Of a DNA stretch of 64,000 nt, positions 53,496 to 62,366 are shown piece after piece; within the stretch, counting starts at the first letter, position 1; every line of letters begins with the position of its first letter. The notes beneath the pieces are model-generated. The model made no database searches, was not told the origin of the DNA, and saw only the letters and a program-made list of their open reading frames with translations. The position numbers and the translations under genes were made by a program. Source of the stretch: Pseudofrankia inefficax (GTDB lineage Bacteria > Actinomycetota > Actinomycetes > Frankiales > Frankiaceae); NCBI RefSeq assembly GCF_000166135.1, contig NC_014666.1, positions 7,068,001 to 7,132,000 of the forward strand, in the 5' to 3' direction.

Positions 53496-54629
53496 ATGTC
53501 CAGATCCGCCCGCCCGAACCAGCGAAGAACGCGATTCCGGAAACTGGCCGTGCTGTTACTCGGTTCGCTGACGAGCCTGTTGCTCGTGGGCACCGGCGGG
53601 CCGGCGCACGCGGCCGCGGGCGTTTCACTGCCGGGCGACGAGTCCCCGCACGTGAGCGCCGGGATGGAATGGTGGTACATCACCGGCCATCTCAGCGGGA
53701 AGGACCTCCTCGGAAAGACGCACTCGTACGGCTTCGAGACCCTGATCAACCGCGTCGACGGCCTCTCGACCGCGCCGGTCGCCACCATCTACAACGGCAA
53801 CTTCGCGATCGCGGACCTGACCCGGGGCACCTACTCGTCGACGAAGAGCCTTTACAGCATCAGCCCCGACAACGTCCCGGCCGGCGGCGGCTTCAGCGTC
53901 AGCGCGGGCCCCATTCACATCGACGGCAAGAACCTGGTCAACCACTTCTCCGGTGGTTTCTCCGACCTGAGCTACGTCTTCGGCACCATGACCGCGAGCC
54001 AGACCCAGCCGGCCGCGCTGCACGGCAACGCCGGCACCATCGGCTACGGGCCGTTCGGCACGTCGGGCTACTACTCCGAGACGAACCTGCACGTCACCGG
54101 GACCCTGTTCGACCACGGCAGCCCGGTGAACGTGACCGGCACCGCCTGGCTGGACCACCAGTGGGGTAACTGGACGCCGGGCCAGGGCGGCTGGGAGTGG
54201 TACAGCCTGCAGCTGTCGAACAACACCCAGTACATGCTCTACTTCATCCGCGACGCGAACGGCAACTACGTCCAGACGATCGGCACCCGGGTCAACGCGG
54301 ACGGCACGACCACCAACCTGCCGACCGCCCAGCTCAGCCGCGCGACGACGGGCACCTGGACGAGTCCGGACACCGGAATCACCTATCCGGTGGCCTCGAC
54401 GGTGAACGTTCCTGGCGGGACGCTCGCCGTCACGCCACAGCTGGTGAACCAGGAGGTCTGGAGCAGCCTCATTCCCCAGGGCAACTACTGGGAGGGCACC
54501 TCGACGGTGGCGGGCACGATCAACGGCCAGGCCGTGACCGGTCAGGCCTACGCCGAGGTCATTCCCTTCATCGACATGCCAGGCCATGGCTACGTCTGGA
54601 CGTCCGTGAAGAACCTGCTCGGGATCTGA
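53496..54629 (+). CDS. Exported CrtC/AttH-like lipocalin-fold protein
   Basis: A 377-residue protein with a clear signal peptide (basic N-terminus, LAVLLLGSLTSLLLVG, cleavage near AHAAA). The mature part has GMEWWYITGHLSG near its start and GTAWLDHQWGNW around residue 220, the two signatures of the hydroxyneurosporene synthase (CrtC)/AttH superfamily, where Asp and His are thought to be catalytic in CrtC. There are no carotenoid genes here, and the secreted location argues for a different substrate, perhaps a lipid. GAGAGGG precedes the ATG. Single-gene unit followed by a terminator. Confidence 0.85.
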   Translation: MSRSARPNQRRTRFRKLAVLLLGSLTSLLLVGTGGPAHAAAGVSLPGDESPHVSAGMEWWYITGHLSGKDLLGKTHSYGFETLINRVDGLSTAPVATIYNGNFAIADLTRGTYSSTKSLYSISPDNVPAGGGFSVSAGPIHIDGKNLVNHFSGGFSDLSYVFGTMTASQTQPAALHGNAGTIGYGPFGTSGYYSETNLHVTGTLFDHGSPVNVTGTAWLDHQWGNWTPGQGGWEWYSLQLSNNTQYMLYFIRDANGNYVQTIGTRVNADGTTTNLPTAQLSRATTGTWTSPDTGITYPVASTVNVPGGTLAVTPQLVNQEVWSSLIPQGNYWEGTSTVAGTINGQAVTGQAYAEVIPFIDMPGHGYVWTSVKNLLGI

Positions 54630-54701: not shown

Positions 54702-55472
54702 TCAGGCGAGCGGGAGATAGGCGCTGGCGACGGCCTCGCGGTTGGCCTCGGCCTCGGCGGCGGTGCCGGACCAGGCGACCCGGCCGTGCCGCAGGACGTG
54801 GACCCGGTCGGCGATCGTCAGCGCGCTGCGGACGTGCTGCTCGACGAGCAGGACGGCCAGGCCGTCGTCGGCGGCGGCTCGCACCGCCATCAGGAGCCGG
54901 GTGACAAGCTGCGGCGCGAGGCCGAGCGACAGCTCGTCCGCGAGCAGCGCGGTCGGCCGGCGGGCCAGCGCCCTGGCGAGGGTCACCATCTGCTGCTGCC
55001 CGCCAGAGAGCAGCCCGGCCTTGCGGTCCAGGTGCTCGGCCAGCTCCGGGAAGGCGGCCAGCGCGAGGGCCGGGTCGCAGCGCCCGACGCGCAGGTTCTC
55101 CCGCACGGTCAGGCTCATGATCACCGAGCGGTCCTCGGGGACCAGGCTCAGGCCGGCCCGGGCCCGCCGGTGCAGCGGTGCCGTCGTGGCGGCGCCGGCC
55201 CAGTGCACCTCGCCCGAGTGCGGCGCGAGCGCACCGGCCAGCGTCAGCAGGGTCGTCGTCTTGCCGGCACCGTTCGGGCCCAGCAGCACGACGACCTCGC
55301 CGGCCCGTACCGGCAGGTCGAGGTCGCGCACGACCGGCGCGCCGCCGTAGCCGGCGGACAGCCCACAGGCGGCAAGCACGGGCGGCGCGGCCGGCGCCGA
55401 CCTGGCGCGGCGGAGCCGGCCAGCCGGCCGGTCGCGCTCGCCCCGCCGGACGCTCGGCAGCCGGGGACTCAT
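54702..55472 (-). CDS. livF: Branched-chain amino acid-type ABC transporter ATPase LivF
   Basis: A 256-residue ATPase. Walker A GPNGAGKTT, signature LLSGGQQQMVTLARAL, Walker B ALLADELSLGLAPQ and the switch His in LVEQHV are intact; the SLGLAP form is typical of LivF. A 25-residue Arg-rich N-terminus precedes the domain. The ATG overlaps the stop of the LivHMG fusion (ATGA), so both are from one operon and form the heterodimeric ATPase pair. Confidence 0.94.
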   Translation of the reverse strand: MSPRLPSVRRGERDRPAGRLRRARSAPAAPPVLAACGLSAGYGGAPVVRDLDLPVRAGEVVVLLGPNGAGKTTTLLTLAGALAPHSGEVHWAGAATTAPLHRRARAGLSLVPEDRSVIMSLTVRENLRVGRCDPALALAAFPELAEHLDRKAGLLSGGQQQMVTLARALARRPTALLADELSLGLAPQLVTRLLMAVRAAADDGLAVLLVEQHVRSALTIADRVHVLRHGRVAWSGTAAEAEANREAVASAYLPLA

Positions 55473-58400
55473 CGGCCGGCTCCCGGCGCGACCGGAGCGT
55501 CGGCGCCGGCGGTCCGAGCGGCCCGCTGCCGAGTGCTGGTGCCCCGGCGGCGCCCGTCCCCGCTGACCTGCTCGCCGAGGTACGCGAGCTGCACGTTCGG
55601 ATCGTCGCGCACCGCCGCGGGCGTGCCCTCGGCGATCATCCGGCCGGCGTCGAGCACGACGATCCGGTCGCAGACCGACATGACGACGTCCATGTCGTGC
55701 TCGTTGAGCAGGATGCCCAGCCCCCACTCGTCGGCGAGCCGGCGCAGCAGCCGGGCGACCTCGCGGCTCTCGTTCTCGTCCAGGCCCGCGCACGGCTCGT
55801 CGAGCAGCAGGACGGACGGCCGGGCGGCGACCGCGCGGGCGATCGCGAGCAGCCGGCGCCGGCCGTAGGGCAGCTCGGTGACGGCCCGGGTCAGGTCGTC
55901 GCGCAGGCCGAAGGCCTCGATGGCGGCCCGCGCCGCCGGCGGGAGCACCCGGGTCCGTGGCCAGAACAGGTTGGTCAGGTAGGCCCTCAGGTCGCGCGGG
56001 TCGCTGGCCGCCTCGATGTTCTCCAGGACGGTGAGGTCCTCGAACAGCTCGAGGTTCTGGAAGGAGCGCTGGACGCCACGGCGGGCCCGGCGGTGCGCGG
56101 GCAGCCGGTCGAGCCGGTGCTCCCCGAGGGTCAGCTGGCGCGACCTGGCCGGGGTGTAACCGGTGATCGCGTCGACCACGGTGGTCTTGCCCGCGCCGTT
56201 CGGGCCGATCAGGCCGACGATCTGGCCGGGTGTCACCCGGAGGTTCACGTCGTCGACGGCGGTCACGGCCCCGAACCGGACGGTCAGCCCCCAGACGGAC
56301 AGCGTCGCAGGCCGGATCACGCCGGCACCGCGGCCAAGCGCGGCCAGCCGCCTGGCCGCCCCCGGCTCACCCGCCGGGATCGCTCCACCGTTCGGGTCGC
56401 CGCCCACCGGCTCGGGGCCGCCCGCGGCGAGCAGCTGGTCGGCCCGGCGCCGCTCGCGGGACGCGTAACGGCCGCGCCGCGACGGGGGCGTCAGCTGAGT
56501 CGCGATCCCTCGGGCCGCCGCCGCGTTGCCCGGGGCCATCCCGCCCCCGGACGTCGCCAGGATCGTGACGAGCACGATCCCGCCGAGCAGCGGGACGTAG
56601 CGGTCCAGCTGGGTCAGCCAGTCGAGTACCCGGCCGCTGGCCGCGACGGCCACCGCGGTGAGCACCGCCGCGCCCACCCACGGCCCCGGCCGGCGCCACA
56701 CCGGCCGCCGCGCCGACGCCGCCATCGGCACGTCGTCCCGCGCCCCTGCCTCGGCGCCGTCGTCGACCGCTGGCGCGGCTTCGCCACCCGGCGCCGGGAC
56801 CGGGCCACCCGGAGCCGGCGCGGCGGCGGACCGACCCGCTGACGAGCCCAGGCGAGCGCCGAGGCTGAAACCGACGACGGTCCCGAGCAGGGCGATCACG
56901 GTCCTGGCGAACGCGGCCACGCCGGTCAGCAGGTCGCCGATCCAGGCTCCCAGCCGGGTGCCGAGAGCGCCGGTCGCCCAGGTCGCGCCGGCGAACGCAC
57001 CGCTGACCCAGCCGACGCCACCCAGTACCGCGAAGGCGATCAGCAGGATCGAGGTGAACGGCGAGAACAGCCCGCCGCCGTAGTCGATGTTGCCGCGGGC
57101 GCCGTAGGTGTAGAAGGCGAACAGGACGCCGCCATAGCCCGCGATCGCGGCCGAGAGCGCGAACGCGTACAGCTTCGCGCCGACGACGCTGATCCCGAGC
57201 GCGGCGGCCGCCCGCTCGTTGGTCCGGACGGCGATCAGCCGGCGCCCGACCCGGCCTCGGCGCAGGTTCGCGACGGCCACCGCGAGGACGCCGAAGGACA
57301 GCAACGACAGCGTCGCGAAGGCCCGCGGCGCCTCGACCGTGTCGAGCCGGACGCCGAACAGCGTCTGGTGCCCGACGATGGTGCCCTCCGGATCGCCGAG
57401 CACGCCGAACGCCGCGGCGGCCGAGCCCGGTGGCGGCGGGGTGTGGTAGCCGCGCTGGAAGAGGATGGAGTCGGCCGCGGCGCCCAGCCCGAGGGTGACG
57501 ACGGCCAGTTGGAGGCCACGGGTGCGCAGCGCCGGCAGCGCGAACAGCACGCCGAGCGCCGCCGTTCCGAGCACGCCGAGCGCGAGCGCCGCCTCCAGCG
57601 GCCAGCCCCGCACGGCCACCAGCCGACCCGCGATCAGCGCGGCCACCCCGGAGAACGCGAGCTGCGCCAGGGAGAGCTGACCGGTCAGGCCGACCAGCAC
57701 CACCACCGAGAGGATGAGCATCGCCCACTGGGCGTTGACGTCCAGCGCGTTCACCCAGTCGACCGGCAGCGCGTACCAGATCAGGCAGATCGCCACGGTC
57801 ATGGCCACGATGAGCGCTGGCCAGTGGATTCGGCCGCTTCCGAGCGCGGGCAGCTTCTCGTTGACGTGCCCTCTGTCGGGGATGTGCCGGCCGCGGATCG
57901 CCAGGTAGAAGACGATGACCAGCAGCGGGATGGCCCGGTCGACCCCGCGCCAGGCCGGGTGCTTGCTGACCAGCTGGACCTGGGTCTCCACCTCGACGAT
58001 GGCGAGCACCACCGAGGCGACGAACACCGCAGGGAACGAGCGGAACCCGGCGACCAGCCCGATCGCCAGCGCCGGCACGATCAGCAGCATCAGGTTGGGC
58101 GCGCCCAGCGGCTGCTGGAGCGGGGCGAGCAGCACCCCGGCGAGACCGGCCAGCGCGGCCCCGAGCGTCCACGCCCCGGCGGCCACCAGGTCGGGCGACC
58201 AGCCGAACGTCGCCGCAGCCCGCGGGTTCTCGGTGACGGCCGTCGCCGCCAGGCCGATCGTCGTGTGCCGGAACAGCGCCCACAGCCCGGCCAGTACCGC
58301 GCCGACGACGCCGAGCCGGACGAAGACGCCCCAGTCGACCGGCATCCCGAACAGCGTCACGTTGCCGGTCGGCAGCACGGTCGGCGAGGAGCGCACGGCC

Positions 58401-58747
58401 GTGCTGTAGATCAGGGTGAGCATCGCCTGGAGGATGATCAGCAGCCCGAGCGTGGCCATGACCCTGGTCAGGGCCGAGCCGTCGCGCATCGGGCGCATCA
58501 CGAGGAGGTGGAACAGCAGGCCGATCAGCGCGGTCGAGCCGACGGCGAGCACCGCCGCGAACCAGGTGGGCAGCGACCAGACCACGGCCGCCCCGTGAAA
58601 GGAGTAGGCGGCCCAGGCCAGCAGCGCGCCGTGCGCCAGGTTCAGCACGCCGGATCCACGCTGGACGATCACGATCCCGGCCGACATCAGCGCGTACAGG
58701 CCGGCCGTGCCCAGACCTAGCAGGGCGTAGCCGATCACGTCGTTCAC
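55469..58747 (-). CDS. LivH-LivM-LivG fusion: two permeases and an ATPase in one polypeptide
   Basis: A 1092-residue protein that combines three components usually coded separately. Residues 1-295 are LivH-like (LNLAHGALLAWAAY, RPMRDGSALTRVMATLG), 300-640 LivM-like (LTGQLSLAQLAFSGVAALIA, RTNERAAAALGI), about 640-800 a Pro/Gly-rich linker with two to three extra helices, and about 820-1060 a LivG-like ATPase (GPNGAGKTTVVDAITG, signature ELPYGRRRLLAIARAV, LLLDEPCAGLDENE, NEHDMDVV). One frame is open throughout, with no stop or frameshift. The signature has LPYGR rather than LSYGQ. With LivF it gives a complete HAAT importer, and the receptor is presumably the lipoprotein at 60165-61427. Confidence 0.93.
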   Translation of the reverse strand: MNDVIGYALLGLGTAGLYALMSAGIVIVQRGSGVLNLAHGALLAWAAYSFHGAAVVWSLPTWFAAVLAVGSTALIGLLFHLLVMRPMRDGSALTRVMATLGLLIILQAMLTLIYSTAVRSSPTVLPTGNVTLFGMPVDWGVFVRLGVVGAVLAGLWALFRHTTIGLAATAVTENPRAAATFGWSPDLVAAGAWTLGAALAGLAGVLLAPLQQPLGAPNLMLLIVPALAIGLVAGFRSFPAVFVASVVLAIVEVETQVQLVSKHPAWRGVDRAIPLLVIVFYLAIRGRHIPDRGHVNEKLPALGSGRIHWPALIVAMTVAICLIWYALPVDWVNALDVNAQWAMLILSVVVLVGLTGQLSLAQLAFSGVAALIAGRLVAVRGWPLEAALALGVLGTAALGVLFALPALRTRGLQLAVVTLGLGAAADSILFQRGYHTPPPPGSAAAAFGVLGDPEGTIVGHQTLFGVRLDTVEAPRAFATLSLLSFGVLAVAVANLRRGRVGRRLIAVRTNERAAAALGISVVGAKLYAFALSAAIAGYGGVLFAFYTYGARGNIDYGGGLFSPFTSILLIAFAVLGGVGWVSGAFAGATWATGALGTRLGAWIGDLLTGVAAFARTVIALLGTVVGFSLGARLGSSAGRSAAAPAPGGPVPAPGGEAAPAVDDGAEAGARDDVPMAASARRPVWRRPGPWVGAAVLTAVAVAASGRVLDWLTQLDRYVPLLGGIVLVTILATSGGGMAPGNAAAARGIATQLTPPSRRGRYASRERRRADQLLAAGGPEPVGGDPNGGAIPAGEPGAARRLAALGRGAGVIRPATLSVWGLTVRFGAVTAVDDVNLRVTPGQIVGLIGPNGAGKTTVVDAITGYTPARSRQLTLGEHRLDRLPAHRRARRGVQRSFQNLELFEDLTVLENIEAASDPRDLRAYLTNLFWPRTRVLPPAARAAIEAFGLRDDLTRAVTELPYGRRRLLAIARAVAARPSVLLLDEPCAGLDENESREVARLLRRLADEWGLGILLNEHDMDVVMSVCDRIVVLDAGRMIAEGTPAAVRDDPNVQLAYLGEQVSGDGRRRGTSTRQRAARTAGADAPVAPGAGR

Positions 58748-58889
58748 CGTGGCCTACCCCTTGCACCCGTCGAGCCGAAACCCCCGGCTTCCGGGGAAAC
58801 GCGGCATTCTGACCAAGGGGCATGGTCGCACAGCGCTTACCCGGAACCGGGGCCGGCGTCGTTCGTTGAACGAGGGAGGGGAGTTACGG

Positions 58890-60086
58890 ATGCTCGAGCT
58901 GGTCGCGGGAGCGAACGGACCGTTACCGCACGGCGTGGTCCAGGTGCGGCTGCCCGGGCCGTTCGACCTGTCAGCGCTGGTCATCGGGGCCGACGACCGG
59001 GTCGGTGGCGACGCCGATTTCGTCTTCTACAACCAGCCGTCGACCCGCGGCGTCCGGCTCACCTCGGCCCGGCCCGCCGGTCCCGGCCGCGCCGTCCTGA
59101 TCGGCGCGGACGAGGTGACGCTCGAGCCGGGCCGGCTGCGGGCCGGTGCCGAGCGGGTGATGCTGGTCGCGAGCCCCGCCGACGGGAGCACCCCGTTCGG
59201 CCGGCTGCCGGCACCGACGGCGACGGTGTATGACAGCGCTGGCGCCGCCGCGGTCCGGCTCGTCCCGCCGCGGCTCGGCCCGGAGACGGCGCTGCTGGTC
59301 GGCGAGATCTACCGGCGCGCGGGCGGGTGGCGGGTCCGGACGATCGGCCAGGGCTACGCGGACGGCCTGGCCGGGCTGGCCCGCGATTTCGGCGTCGACG
59401 TGGACGACTCCCCCGGCCCCGCGCCGGCCGTCCCCCCGGTCCCGGCTGGCCGGCGCCCGAGCGACGCCCCGGTACCAACGGGCCCGCCGTGGTCAGGCCC
59501 TGGGCCCGACCCGTCGGTCCCCGGCTCGATTCCCACCGCCGTCCCGGTGCCGCCACCGCTCATGACGCCGCCACCGCTGGTTCCCGAGTCGCCCTCCGAC
59601 CATTCGCCCTGGTCGGGGCAGGGGCGCGCCCGGGTGTTCGGGGTCTACGGCCCGTCTCCCGAGCCGGGCCAGTGGGCGCAGCCGCTCGGCCGCGACCCGC
59701 TCGCGGAGGTGGTCATGCTGACCAACCAGCAGCGCCAGCTGAACGGGCTGCCGCCGCTGGCTCCGGAACCGCTGCTGGCCAGGGCTGCCGCCGCGCACAG
59801 CGCGGACATGGCAGCCCGCCGGTTCTTCGACCACCGCAACCCGGACGGCCTGCAGGTCGCCGACCGGGTCACCGCGCTCGGCTACCGGTTCGGAACCGTC
59901 GCCGAGAACATCGCCGCCGGCCAGCGGACCCCGGCCGAGGTGGTCACCGGCTGGATGAACAGCCCCGGCCACCGGCGCAACATCTTGTTGCCCGAGATCA
60001 CCCAGATCGGCGTCGGCTACTCGCCCAGCGCCGACGTCTACGGCTGCTACTGGACCCAGGTGTTCGGCACGCCGCGGGCCTGGTGA
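58890..60086 (+). CDS. TerD-like domain fused to CAP/SCP domain
   Basis: A 398-residue two-domain protein. Residues 1-175 match the TerD tellurium-resistance/stress family (DFVFYNQPSTRGVRLTSA, GRLRAGAERVMLVASPADG, LLVGEIYRRAGGWRVRTIGQ), a Ca2+-binding cytoplasmic fold. After a Pro-rich linker (176-265) comes a CAP domain (272-398): AAAHSADMAARRFFDHRNPDG, GTVAENIAAGQ and WMNSPGHRRNILLPE, with the cavity His and Glu residues intact. No signal peptide exists, although CAP proteins are usually exported. GAGGGAGGGG precedes the ATG. It is plus strand, wedged between the minus-strand LivHMG fusion and its probable binding protein. Confidence 0.88.
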   Translation: MLELVAGANGPLPHGVVQVRLPGPFDLSALVIGADDRVGGDADFVFYNQPSTRGVRLTSARPAGPGRAVLIGADEVTLEPGRLRAGAERVMLVASPADGSTPFGRLPAPTATVYDSAGAAAVRLVPPRLGPETALLVGEIYRRAGGWRVRTIGQGYADGLAGLARDFGVDVDDSPGPAPAVPPVPAGRRPSDAPVPTGPPWSGPGPDPSVPGSIPTAVPVPPPLMTPPPLVPESPSDHSPWSGQGRARVFGVYGPSPEPGQWAQPLGRDPLAEVVMLTNQQRQLNGLPPLAPEPLLARAAAAHSADMAARRFFDHRNPDGLQVADRVTALGYRFGTVAENIAAGQRTPAEVVTGWMNSPGHRRNILLPEITQIGVGYSPSADVYGCYWTQVFGTPRAW

Positions 60087-60164: not shown

Positions 60165-61427
60165 TCAGGCTCCGGCCTGCTCCAGGATCTTCAGCGCGTC
60201 GTAGCTCTGGGTGCCGAGCGGGACGTAGGTCTTGGTCGCCGCGTCCCAGCGGACACCGCGCATCGTCGTGTTGAACAGCCGCTGCGCGCCGGGGATCGGC
60301 GACGGCTTGGTGAAGTTCAACGCCGGGGTGATACCGCCGAGGTCCAGGTTCGAGGTCTTGTTCAGCTGGTCGAGCAGCGCGGTCGACGTCAGCGCGTCGC
60401 CGGGGATGGCGTCGGCGACCTTCTCGACGATCTGCACCGACAGCCAGGCACCGATCGTGTTCGTCGAGCTGGTCCGCAGCGCCGCGTCCGGGTCACCGGC
60501 CTTGACCTCGGCGTCGAGCTCCTTGACCGCCCGGGCGATCTCCGGGTACTGGGTGGCCTGGCTCAGCTCGGGGAAGGCGCTCGCGAAGACCAGCGCGTTG
60601 GCCGCGGTTCCCTCCTGCGTCAGCCAGTCGCGGGACAGGACGCCCATCGCGTGGCAGTACTTCTGGCCGGTCGAGCCGCCGGCCTTGACCTCCGCGTAGG
60701 CGCCCTGGTCGACGACGACCAGCACGGTCCCGTCGACGCCGGCCCGCTTGACCTGGGTCGCCGTCGGGGTGAAGTCGCTGGTGTCGATCGGGACCCGCGG
60801 CTCGATGACGAGCGGGGACCCGGCCTGCTTGGCGCCGAGCTCGGCCATCTTCATCAGCCGGTCGACCTGCGGCAGGCTGTAGCCGACCGCGCCGAGCTTC
60901 GTCGCGCCGGCCGCCTTGAGCAGCGCGGGGCAGACCGCCGGGTAGTAGGTCAGCGGGCTGAGCATGAAGCTGACCGAGGAGGACAGCTCCGAGCCGTCGA
61001 TCGAGATGCCGGCCGAGCCGATCGACGGGATGTGCGCGGCCTCCAGGATCGGCATGATGCCGCCGCTGGCGCTGACCTCGTTGACGACGGCGAGGACGTG
61101 GTCGCTGACCGCCTGGTTCGCGCAGGACTTGGCCGTCTCCGCGTCGTTCTTCTCGTTGCAGTAGACGAGCTCGACCGGGTGGCCCTTGATCCCGCCGCGG
61201 GAGTTCAGGCCACGCACCGCGGCCTTGGTCGCGCCGACGATGTCCGGGTAGTTCGAGCCGGCCGTCCCGGTCGGCGCGATGACCATGAGCTTGACCGCTG
61301 CGCCCGCTGCGACCGCGGTCGCGCCGCTCCCGGTGCCGTCGCCGCTCCCGGACTCGCTGCACGCGGCCAGAGCCAGCGCGGCGCCGAGCGCCGCGGCTGC
61401 CAGGCGCAGCGTGTGCCGTCGTCCCAC
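60165..61427 (-). CDS. ABC transporter substrate-binding lipoprotein (HAAT family)
   Basis: A 420-residue receptor. Signal residues 1-23 end in lipobox LAAC (Cys23), then a Ser/Gly linker and the type I binding fold (VKLMVIAPTGTAGSNYPDIV, AAVRGLNSRGGIKGHPVELVYC, PSIGSAGISIDGSE). The GTG at 61425-61427 has GAGGAGG upstream. It is on the same strand as, and upstream of, the LivHMG-LivF genes but separated by the opposite-strand TerD-CAP gene; functional pairing with that transporter is likely. Confidence 0.93.
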   Translation of the reverse strand: MGRRHTLRLAAAALGAALALAACSESGSGDGTGSGATAVAAGAAVKLMVIAPTGTAGSNYPDIVGATKAAVRGLNSRGGIKGHPVELVYCNEKNDAETAKSCANQAVSDHVLAVVNEVSASGGIMPILEAAHIPSIGSAGISIDGSELSSSVSFMLSPLTYYPAVCPALLKAAGATKLGAVGYSLPQVDRLMKMAELGAKQAGSPLVIEPRVPIDTSDFTPTATQVKRAGVDGTVLVVVDQGAYAEVKAGGSTGQKYCHAMGVLSRDWLTQEGTAANALVFASAFPELSQATQYPEIARAVKELDAEVKAGDPDAALRTSSTNTIGAWLSVQIVEKVADAIPGDALTSTALLDQLNKTSNLDLGGITPALNFTKPSPIPGAQRLFNTTMRGVRWDAATKTYVPLGTQSYDALKILEQAGA

Positions 61428-61634
61428 CTGGGACCTCCTCGTCGTTCCCGCGGAACCCGTTGGGCCGCCGGAGTCCTTGGCCCGCTGGGCCGAGCAACGA
61501 CACCGTAGCCGGGCCGGATCCGCCACCGGGGTGTGGGTGGTCGACATCGCCCGCGCCCGCGTACCGCGCGCACCGCGCCGTAGTGGCCTGGTCGCGGTCG
61601 GCGCCAGGCTGGGTCGGTCCGACGCGGCCTCGCG

Positions 61635-62366
61635 TCAGATCAGGTGCGACCACGCGTAGGCGAAGCCCATGACCTGGTCGGTCAGCGTCTCGAAGCGGTC
61701 GGCCACGGACGGGTTCGCGATCGCGCCGTACGGGTCGATCGCCGCGCTTTCGTGCTTGCTCAGGCTGATCCCGAGCGGGGTGGGCCAGCCGCCGAGCGCG
61801 TGCACGCGGGCACGCAGCGCCGGCAGCGCACCGCCGGCACCAGGGCCCTCGTCGCAGGCCAGCAGCCCGACCGGCCGAGCCTCCAGGCACGGCCTCGGCG
61901 CGTCCCGCAGGTCCCACAGGTAGTCGAGCGCGTTCGTGACCAGGCTCGACGTGCCGCCGAGGTAGTCCGGGGCGGCGATGAGCAGGCCATCGGCGCGCCC
62001 GATCTCGCCGATGAGGCGGCGGGCTCCCGCGGAGCGCTCGCCGCTGTCCGGCTGGTAGGGCGGCAGCTCCAGCTCGGCGAGGCTCAGGATGACCGTCTCG
62101 GCACCGGCCTGCGCCACCATCTTGATCGCCGCGCCCAGCGCCCGCATCGTCGGCGCGTCGGCCCGCGGCGAGCCGCCAAGGCCGACGATCAGTGGCCGAC
62201 GCCGCCCGGACTGGCCCGGCCCGACGCCCGGATTGCGGCGCTCCAGCCCCGGCCCCATCCCGCGGTCACCGCCAAGCTCGCTCGGTGCGCCCGTGGGGCG
62301 TCGGACCGCCAACGGAGAGCCGTCGCGTACCGAGGCCGGAATGGTCCCGAAGCCGTCCACCCGCAC
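61635..62366 (-). CDS. NADPH-dependent FMN reductase-like flavoprotein
   Basis: A protein of up to 243 residues with a flavodoxin-like fold: PLIVGLGGSPRADAPTMRAL (FMN phosphate loop), then ADGLLIAAPDYLGGTSSLVTNALDYL, typical of the FMN_red family. The first 55 residues are poorly conserved-looking, and translation may start at GTG 62360 (better ribosome spacing from GAGGGAG) or ATG 62258. It might supply reduced flavin to an LLM monooxygenase such as the one at 4.5 kb, but there is no genomic link. Confidence 0.85.
   Translation of the reverse strand: MRVDGFGTIPASVRDGSPLAVRRPTGAPSELGGDRGMGPGLERRNPGVGPGQSGRRRPLIVGLGGSPRADAPTMRALGAAIKMVAQAGAETVILSLAELELPPYQPDSGERSAGARRLIGEIGRADGLLIAAPDYLGGTSSLVTNALDYLWDLRDAPRPCLEARPVGLLACDEGPGAGGALPALRARVHALGGWPTPLGISLSKHESAAIDPYGAIANPSVADRFETLTDQVMGFAYAWSHLI

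What the first reader, a model, noticed from the sequence alone, without database searches (positions are those of the whole stretch)
58890..60086. TerD-CAP fusion inserted into a transporter locus
A cytoplasmic calcium-binding TerD stress domain is fused by a Pro-rich linker to a CAP/SCP domain with intact cavity residues, without signal peptide. CAP proteins are normally secreted, so a cytoplasmic, or non-classically exported, CAP activity linked to TerD is unusual. The gene is opposite in strand and splits the receptor from its permease, suggesting insertion. Function unknown; stress- or membrane-related protease or lipid-binding role is conceivable.
Basis: partly seen in the sequence, partly recalled or inferred. 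Interest (0 to 1): 0.62.

Follow-up and report, generated by a model that had tools for sequence, protein, structure and literature searches.

The report
Old TerD–CAP fusion, not inserted
A gene in a Frankia-type soil bacterium joins a stress-response module (TerD) to a module mostly known from exported proteins (CAP); the join is real, old, shared with other actinomycetes and not a recent insertion, and it may put a CAP domain to work inside the cell, but what it does remains untested here.

Summary
The fusion is real: ATG 58890 to stop 60086 encodes 398 aa, with TerD (Pfam 2e-20), a disordered Pro-rich linker and CAP (7e-24). Both folds are recovered by modelling. No signal segment was seen, and the start is conserved.

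Two parts of the interpretation fail. (1) It is not an insertion. The gene is a single ORF in 25 of 35 Frankiaceae genomes and also occurs in Streptomyces and Pseudonocardia. The 45 fused TerD domains tested form one clade. In other Frankiaceae genera the receptor gene lies at the transporter's far end, so it is the receptor's position that changed. (2) Calcium binding is unlikely: the acidic loop of canonical TerDs is absent from 69 of 69 proteins.

Best explanation: one of several TerD fusions in this genome (with vWA, AIM24, Mrr nuclease). TerD may hold a ligand-binding CAP domain in the cytosol, in a Ter/AIM24 membrane-stress complex; AIM24 follows it in 20 of 45 Streptomyces loci. Location, ligand and complex are inferred. 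New variant of a known kind.

The parts
58890..60086 (+). TerD-CAP fusion gene, 398 aa plus stop
   Evidence: orthologues
58875..58883 (+). GGAGGGGAG, ribosome-binding-like site ending 6 nt before the ATG
58890..59402 (+). TerD module, residues 1-171 (Pfam hit 25-167); acidic loop of canonical TerDs absent
59403..59672 (+). Pro-rich linker, residues 172-261, modelled as disordered; dN/dS above that of CAP in 6 of 6 pairs and above that of TerD in 5 of 6
59718..60065 (+). CAP/SCP domain, Pfam residues 277-392; H315, E339, H361 in 69 of 69, H303 in 60 of 69; no cysteine pair at columns 287/368
55469..58747 (-). divergent neighbour: one ORF with two LIV-type permease domains and an ABC ATPase
   Evidence: next to TerD-CAP in 17 of 20 Frankiaceae loci fetched
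60165..61547 (-). convergent neighbour: substrate-binding protein (Peripla_BP_6); at the far end of the transporter genes in 10 loci of other genera
61635..62366 (-). FMN-reductase-like gene that travels with the binding protein

Best explanation
An old two-domain protein of actinomycetes. Shown: a TerD domain at the N-terminus, without the acidic loop of canonical TerDs, is tied by a flexible linker to a CAP domain; no export segment was seen; both domains are under purifying selection; the TerD parts of the fusions form one clade, so the fusion most likely arose once. Inferred: the protein stays in the cytosol or at the inner face of the membrane, TerD acts as the adaptor that docks it into a Ter-type stress complex with AIM24-type partners, and the CAP domain binds a lipid or other small ligand, as a sensor or sequestering part rather than as a protease. 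The LIV transporter beside it is a neighbour, not a partner.
For: Domains and fold. No signal segment seen: 3 of 69 TerD-CAPs against 49 of 50 TerD-less actinomycete CAP ORFs reach the hydropathy threshold. TerD is the N-terminal module of several fusions in the same genome: TerD-vWA (TerF type), TerD-AIM24, TerD-Mrr nuclease and TerD-TerD; a nuclease partner would be expected to work in the cytosol (inference). In Streptomyces an AIM24 gene lies downstream on the same strand in 20 of 45 loci, about 60-90 nt away in 18 of the 20 and about 1 kb in two. PMC5822837 (passages read) says AIM24 is frequent beside TerD, calls TerD paralogues cytoplasmic, and cites a Ter complex at the inner membrane surface. 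One TerD clade, 100/99. dN/dS over six pairs: TerD 0.11-0.43, CAP 0.05-0.23, linker 0.14-0.90. CAP domains as lipid binders: PMC10189770 (section 5 and passages read).
Against: Nothing here tests localisation, ligand or partner. The AIM24 link was seen only in Streptomyces (0 of 6 other loci; some loci are short) and not beside the gene in the Frankiaceae loci, where in 17 of 20 the neighbour is a transporter. Lack of a signal segment does not prove cytosolic location: four cyanobacterial CAP ORFs (L129, L132, L138, L156) also show none upstream, and L132 has RTX-like repeats that suggest another export route (the reading of the repeats is recalled). The missing cysteine pair is not diagnostic either: CAPs with signal-like segments in Halobacillus, Clostridium and an Anaerolineales bacterium lack it, and the CAP tree puts TerD-CAPs with that type at weak support, 91/76. 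TerD-type proteins have been found in Streptomyces vesicles and culture supernatant. TerD has also been proposed to bind nucleotide derivatives (PMC7159879, passage), which would make it a sensor itself and not just an adaptor.
Confidence: 0.47

Rival explanations
1. TerD is a non-classical export or vesicle handle: the fusion leaves the cell without a signal peptide and the CAP domain works outside, as other CAPs do.
For: TerD protein reported in vesicle-containing exudates of S. lividans and in vesicles of S. coelicolor (PMC4476819, passages) and a TerD-like protein in the S. scabiei secretome at low abundance (PMC4098958, passage). Some CAPs of the nearest type carry signal-like segments, and four cyanobacterial ones lack them but may be exported in another way.
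Against: Vesicle and supernatant lists can also hold cytosolic proteins. It is not known whether the reported proteins are TerD-CAPs. TerD partners in this genome include a nuclease domain. No export element was seen in the sequence.
Confidence: 0.17
2. The protein is tied to the neighbouring LIV transporter: a cytosolic sensor or regulator of that transport system.
For: LIV permease next to the gene in 17 of 20 Frankiaceae loci fetched, from three genera; co-directional and upstream of it in the five loci of genus g6.
Against: Orientation differs between genera. Three Frankiaceae loci (L053, L055, L057) lack that transporter, and none of 45 Streptomyces and 3 Pseudonocardia loci holds the permease. 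In one genus-mate the transporter is kept while only ends of the fusion remain.
Confidence: 0.1
3. The CAP domain is a cytosolic metal-dependent peptidase or other enzyme delivered by TerD, comparable with the TerD-Mrr nuclease fusion.
For: H315, E339, H361 in 69 of 69; TerD-Mrr fusion in the same genome.
Against: The cavity residues are nearly as conserved in the 50 TerD-less CAPs (49, 50 and 48 of 50), and in reviewed CAPs they bind metal ions (PMC10189770, section 5). PADLOC gave no hit for the fusion.
Confidence: 0.12
4. One reading: a recent insertion of an accessory gene into a transporter locus.
For: In the window the gene lies between permease and binding protein on the other strand.
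Against: Single ORF in 25 of 35 Frankiaceae genomes, from five of seven genera; one TerD clade; the binding protein lies at the far end of the transporter genes in 10 loci of other genera; decayed remnant, not an empty site, in G034.
Confidence: 0.02

Closest known systems
TerF-type TerD-vWA proteins (PF02342 + PF10138)
   Same: N-terminal TerD followed by a second domain; present in this genome
   Different: The second domain is vWA, not CAP
TerD-AIM24 fusions and AIM24 genes beside TerD
   Same: TerD-AIM24 fusion in this genome at about C1:2942227-2943669; AIM24 follows TerD-CAP in 20 of 45 Streptomyces loci
   Different: AIM24 is described as a double beta-helix fold (PMC5822837, passage), not CAP
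Solved TerDs: 3ibz (Streptomyces coelicolor) and 2kxt (Klebsiella, calcium-binding by its title)
   Same: Same fold: 3ibz Z 17.4, 2kxt Z 13.1
   Different: The acidic loop of the canonical proteins is absent here
YkwD-type bacterial CAP proteins (4ifa, 4d53; NCBIfam TIGR02909)
   Same: CAP fold: 4ifa Z 21.2, 4d53 Z 18.5; TIGR02909 E 4.7e-31, but 107.3 bits against a cut-off of 171
   Different: 4ifa is titled extracellular and 4d53 an outer surface protein; here no signal segment was seen
GAPR-1 (1smb, 4aiw)
   Same: CAP domain, Z 14.5 and 13.9; a CAP without signal peptide (recalled)
   Different: Eukaryotic single-domain protein held to membranes by a lipid anchor (recalled)

Membership tests
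TerD domain family (PF02342) | Profile score above the gathering cut-off and TerD fold | tested here: met
   73.5 bits against 25.3; 13 of 13 members of A1 match; 3ibz Z 17.4
Calcium-binding TerDs | Acidic loop of the GDNxxGxGxGDDE type (its role in Ca binding is recalled) | tested here: not met
   0 of 69 TerD-CAPs by pattern (one of them, L114, was read with a wrong start); seen in L217, L215 and one L214 protein of the same genome
CAP/SCP superfamily (PF00188) | Profile score above the gathering cut-off and CAP fold | tested here: met
   85.4 bits against 21.1; 4ifa Z 21.2, 4d53 Z 18.5
CAP/SCP superfamily (PF00188) | Cavity tetrad of two His and two Glu | tested here: inconclusive
   H315, E339, H361 in 69 of 69 and H303 in 60 of 69; the second Glu appears to be Ser358, by recalled GAPR-1 numbering
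Exported actinomycete CAP proteins | Signal or membrane segment before the CAP domain | tested here: not met
   hydropathy only
Exported actinomycete CAP proteins | Cysteine pair at columns 287 and 368 | tested here: not met
   0 of 69 against 48 of 50; not diagnostic for location,
Ter stress-response system | Gene or fusion link to Ter partners (TerB, TerC, vWA, AIM24) | tested here: inconclusive
   AIM24 beside it in 20 of 45 Streptomyces loci, 0 of 6 others; no other Ter-type domain in the six window proteins scanned
Ter stress-response system | Response to tellurite or redox stress | not testable with these tools
   needs expression or deletion data

The most novel reading that the evidence does not exclude
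TerD-CAP is a bacterial CAP protein that works inside the cell: TerD acts as a general cytosolic adaptor that carries interchangeable effector domains (vWA, AIM24, Mrr nuclease, CAP), and the CAP version senses or sequesters a membrane lipid or lipid breakdown product within a Ter-AIM24 stress complex. That would be the first such CAP that I know of.
Probability: 0.28. Interest if true: 0.6.

Novelty: new variant of a known kind. Interest (0 to 1): 0.42.

Why it matters
CAP domains are widespread, their biochemical activity is still argued over, and the known ones mostly work outside the cell. A conserved bacterial CAP tied to a stress adaptor and without a signal peptide would let their basic biochemistry be tested in genetically tractable Streptomyces. 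It would also support a role for the poorly understood TerD module as an adaptor that carries different effector domains.

Tried and rejected
Insertion: rejected. A partner role for the transporter: unlikely. Missing cysteine pair as proof of cytosolic location: looked decisive (0 of 69 against 48 of 50), then weakened by non-actinobacterial CAPs with signal-like segments that also lack it and by the CAP tree. Missing signal segment as proof: weakened by four cyanobacterial CAP ORFs that lack one too. On re-reading that result for this final version I lowered the best explanation from 0.5 to 0.47 and the novel case from 0.3 to 0.28, and raised the export rival from 0.15 to 0.17. Defence-system membership: no PADLOC hit for the fusion. 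Promoter and terminator scan: nothing found, but it covers sigma-70 consensus and simple hairpins only. An order-level search returned the same 35 genomes as the family search. Literature: 10 searches. Searches found no paper with 'TerD' and 'CAP domain'; the key review of Ter systems (Anantharaman 2012, recalled) is not held and may show this fusion. The search for a GlpD-SCP2 paper gave nothing that I could use in its listing.

Rows dropped before counts: L078, L080, L093 (same contigs, by length, as L009, L023, L025) from the 69; L116, L124 and L133 are not among the 69 because my pattern did not extract them; L151 (itself a TerD-CAP) from the 50 TerD-less CAPs, of which 40 were chosen by me from the longer list. 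Of 43 Streptomyces TerD-CAPs extracted, 17 went into the two trees. Seven of 73 loci had no anchor and are not printed there. L114 was mis-started by my pattern and gave no hairpin.

Full report
What is there. The window lies in a single-contig genome of 8,815,781 bases. By size (recalled) and by its nearest named match (Frankia sp. AgB1.9, 92% in the best segment) I take it for Pseudofrankia (Frankia) inefficax; that name is inferred. The ORF at 58890-60086 encodes 398 aa with TerD at residues 25-167 and CAP at 277-392. A purine-rich GGAGGGGAG ends 6 nt before the ATG, and most residues after it are conserved in the relatives aligned. An AlphaFold2 model on 43 sequences has mean pLDDT 77.3 and pTM 0.63. 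Most blocks of both domains are at 85 or above; residues 1-10 and 61-70 of the TerD part are at 56 and 51, and the linker is disordered. Foldseek and VIA-align match the N-terminal part to solved TerDs (3ibz, 2kxt, 9a6r_B) and the C-terminal part to CAP proteins (4ifa, 4d53, GAPR-1, Pry1).

How widespread. Of 35 Frankiaceae genomes searched, in seven genera, 25 from five genera gave a single intact ORF that I extracted. Of the other ten, G025 shows both halves with open frames of one length but was not extracted; in G006, G015 and G029 halves lie at contig ends; in G013 only a CAP half is listed; in G002, G016 and G024 the halves lie in different frames or with stops; in G034 only ends remain; in G010 no orthologue-like match is listed. 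Outside the family, five genomes of the Streptomyces family carry both halves in a class-wide sample of 148, in which ten genomes of that family are listed with any match. In a sample of 61 genomes of that family, 13 carry both halves, those five among them. In the scan of 84,980 genomes, 51 of the 80 best loci match both halves: 45 Streptomyces, 3 Pseudonocardia and 3 Frankiaceae. The five Streptomyces-family proteins that I read (L058-L062) are TerD-CAP-CAP with a degenerate first CAP, and two were confirmed by two CAP stretches in Pfam. In the 43 Streptomyces proteins extracted, 148-417 aa lie between TerD and the last CAP, as room for a second CAP requires.

One origin. In a tree of 45 TerD domains from fusions and 37 TerD rows from 32 loci in which no CAP was found, the fused ones lie on one side of a branch at 100/99. 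The CAP tree is weakly resolved: it puts the fused CAPs with cysteine-less CAPs of Firmicutes, cyanobacteria and others, apart from 48 actinomycete CAPs with a cysteine pair, at 91/76. Over six pairs of close orthologues dN/dS is 0.11-0.43 for TerD, 0.05-0.23 for CAP and 0.14-0.90 for the linker, so both domains are maintained.

Not an insertion. In 20 Frankiaceae loci fetched, a LIV-type permease sits next to the gene in 17. In the five loci of the window's genus, as in the window, the binding protein follows the fusion. In 10 loci of other genera the binding protein and the FMN reductase lie at the far end of the transporter genes. Two loci end before this can be seen (L049, L054), and three lack the transporter (L053, L055, L057). 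One inversion of the transporter-plus-fusion block converts the order of genus g2 into the window's order (my inference). In the five loci of genus g6 the fusion points the same way as the transporter. In G034, a relative in the same genus with a smaller genome (5.4 Mb against 6.9-11.2 Mb, a draft of 850 contigs), the same gene order is kept but the fusion is reduced to matches of residues 1-24 and 361-398 lying next to each other: a loss, or an assembly fault, but not an empty site. None of 45 Streptomyces and 3 Pseudonocardia loci holds the permease. The adjacency is thus a shared Frankiaceae neighbourhood, and the split of receptor from permease is a side effect of rearrangement.

Calcium. 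The acidic loop seen in canonical TerDs of the same genome and in 3ibz and 2kxt is absent from 69 of 69 TerD-CAPs by pattern. That this loop binds calcium in 2kxt is recalled; the PDB title and a citing paper (PMC8123226, passages) say only that this TerD binds calcium.

Where it works. By a crude hydropathy test, 3 of 69 TerD-CAPs reach a 17-residue mean of 1.7, within the TerD domain, against 49 of 50 TerD-less actinomycete CAP ORFs upstream of the CAP domain. The TerD-less CAPs carry a cysteine pair in 48 of 50 cases and TerD-CAPs in 0 of 69. That looked like a compartment mark, but CAPs with signal-like segments in Halobacillus, Clostridium and an Anaerolineales bacterium also lack the pair, and four cyanobacterial CAP ORFs lack both the pair and a signal segment. 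So I count both signs as compatible with the cytosol, not as proof. Against cytosolic location stand reports of TerD protein in Streptomyces vesicles and supernatant (PMC4476819, PMC4098958; passages). TerD proteins of S. rimosus are phosphorylated (PMC9600765, passages), which fits a cytosolic life but is not about this fusion.

What it may do. In this genome TerD is the N-terminal module of several fusions: TerD-Mrr nuclease (L211), TerD-AIM24 (L212), TerD-vWA of TerF type (L214), TerD-TerD (L216), and the window's TerD-CAP. In 20 of 45 Streptomyces loci an AIM24 gene follows TerD-CAP, about 60-90 nt downstream in 18 and about 1 kb in two; none of the six other loci shows it. A kinase-like gene is found in 21 of the 51 loci, a PALP-family gene in 18, a beta-lactamase-like gene in 18 and a TPR gene in 13. 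These loci are related and some are short, so the counts are neither independent nor complete. AIM24 as a frequent TerD neighbour, the cytoplasmic nature of TerD paralogues and a Ter complex at the inner membrane are stated in PMC5822837 (passages). TerD has been proposed to recognise nucleotide derivatives (PMC7159879, passage). CAP domains bind lipids and metal ions (PMC10189770, section 5 and passages). From this I infer a TerD adaptor holding a lipid- or ligand-binding CAP domain in a membrane-stress complex. The steps from anatomy to ligand and complex are inference.

Novelty. The fusion is common in actinomycetes. The library searched holds no paper with 'TerD' and 'CAP domain', but the main Ter review is not held, so prior notice cannot be excluded. 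I class it as a new variant of a known kind, the TerD fusions.

Noticed in passing
window 55469-58747 (-): One 1092-aa ORF carries two LIV-type permease domains and an ABC ATPase, that is three usual subunits in one chain; long ORFs of this cluster occur in other Frankiaceae loci.
   Followed up: partly
L211:1394-2785 (own genome): TerD fused to an Mrr-type restriction endonuclease domain, with PADLOC hits to type IV restriction and PDC-S02 models.
   Followed up: partly
L212:1728-3170 and the genes after it (own genome, about C1:2942227-2945404): TerD-AIM24 fusion followed by two further AIM24 matches.
   Followed up: partly
L229:4133-4320 (G034): Only the two ends of the fusion remain in a relative with a smaller genome that keeps the neighbouring transporter.
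   Followed up: yes
CAP columns 287 and 368 in TerD-less actinomycete CAPs: A conserved cysteine pair in 48 of 50 TerD-less actinomycete CAP domains, possibly a disulfide.
   Followed up: partly
L058, L059, L060, L061, L062: Streptomyces-family TerD-CAP-CAP proteins whose first CAP domain has lost the PGHRxNIL motif.
   Followed up: no
L129, L132, L138, L156: Cyanobacterial CAP ORFs without a clear signal segment upstream of the CAP domain.
   Followed up: no
window 53496-54629 (+): CrtC-type lipocalin protein (CrtC and Lipocalin_9 Pfam hits) with an N-terminus that looks like a signal peptide by eye.
   Followed up: no
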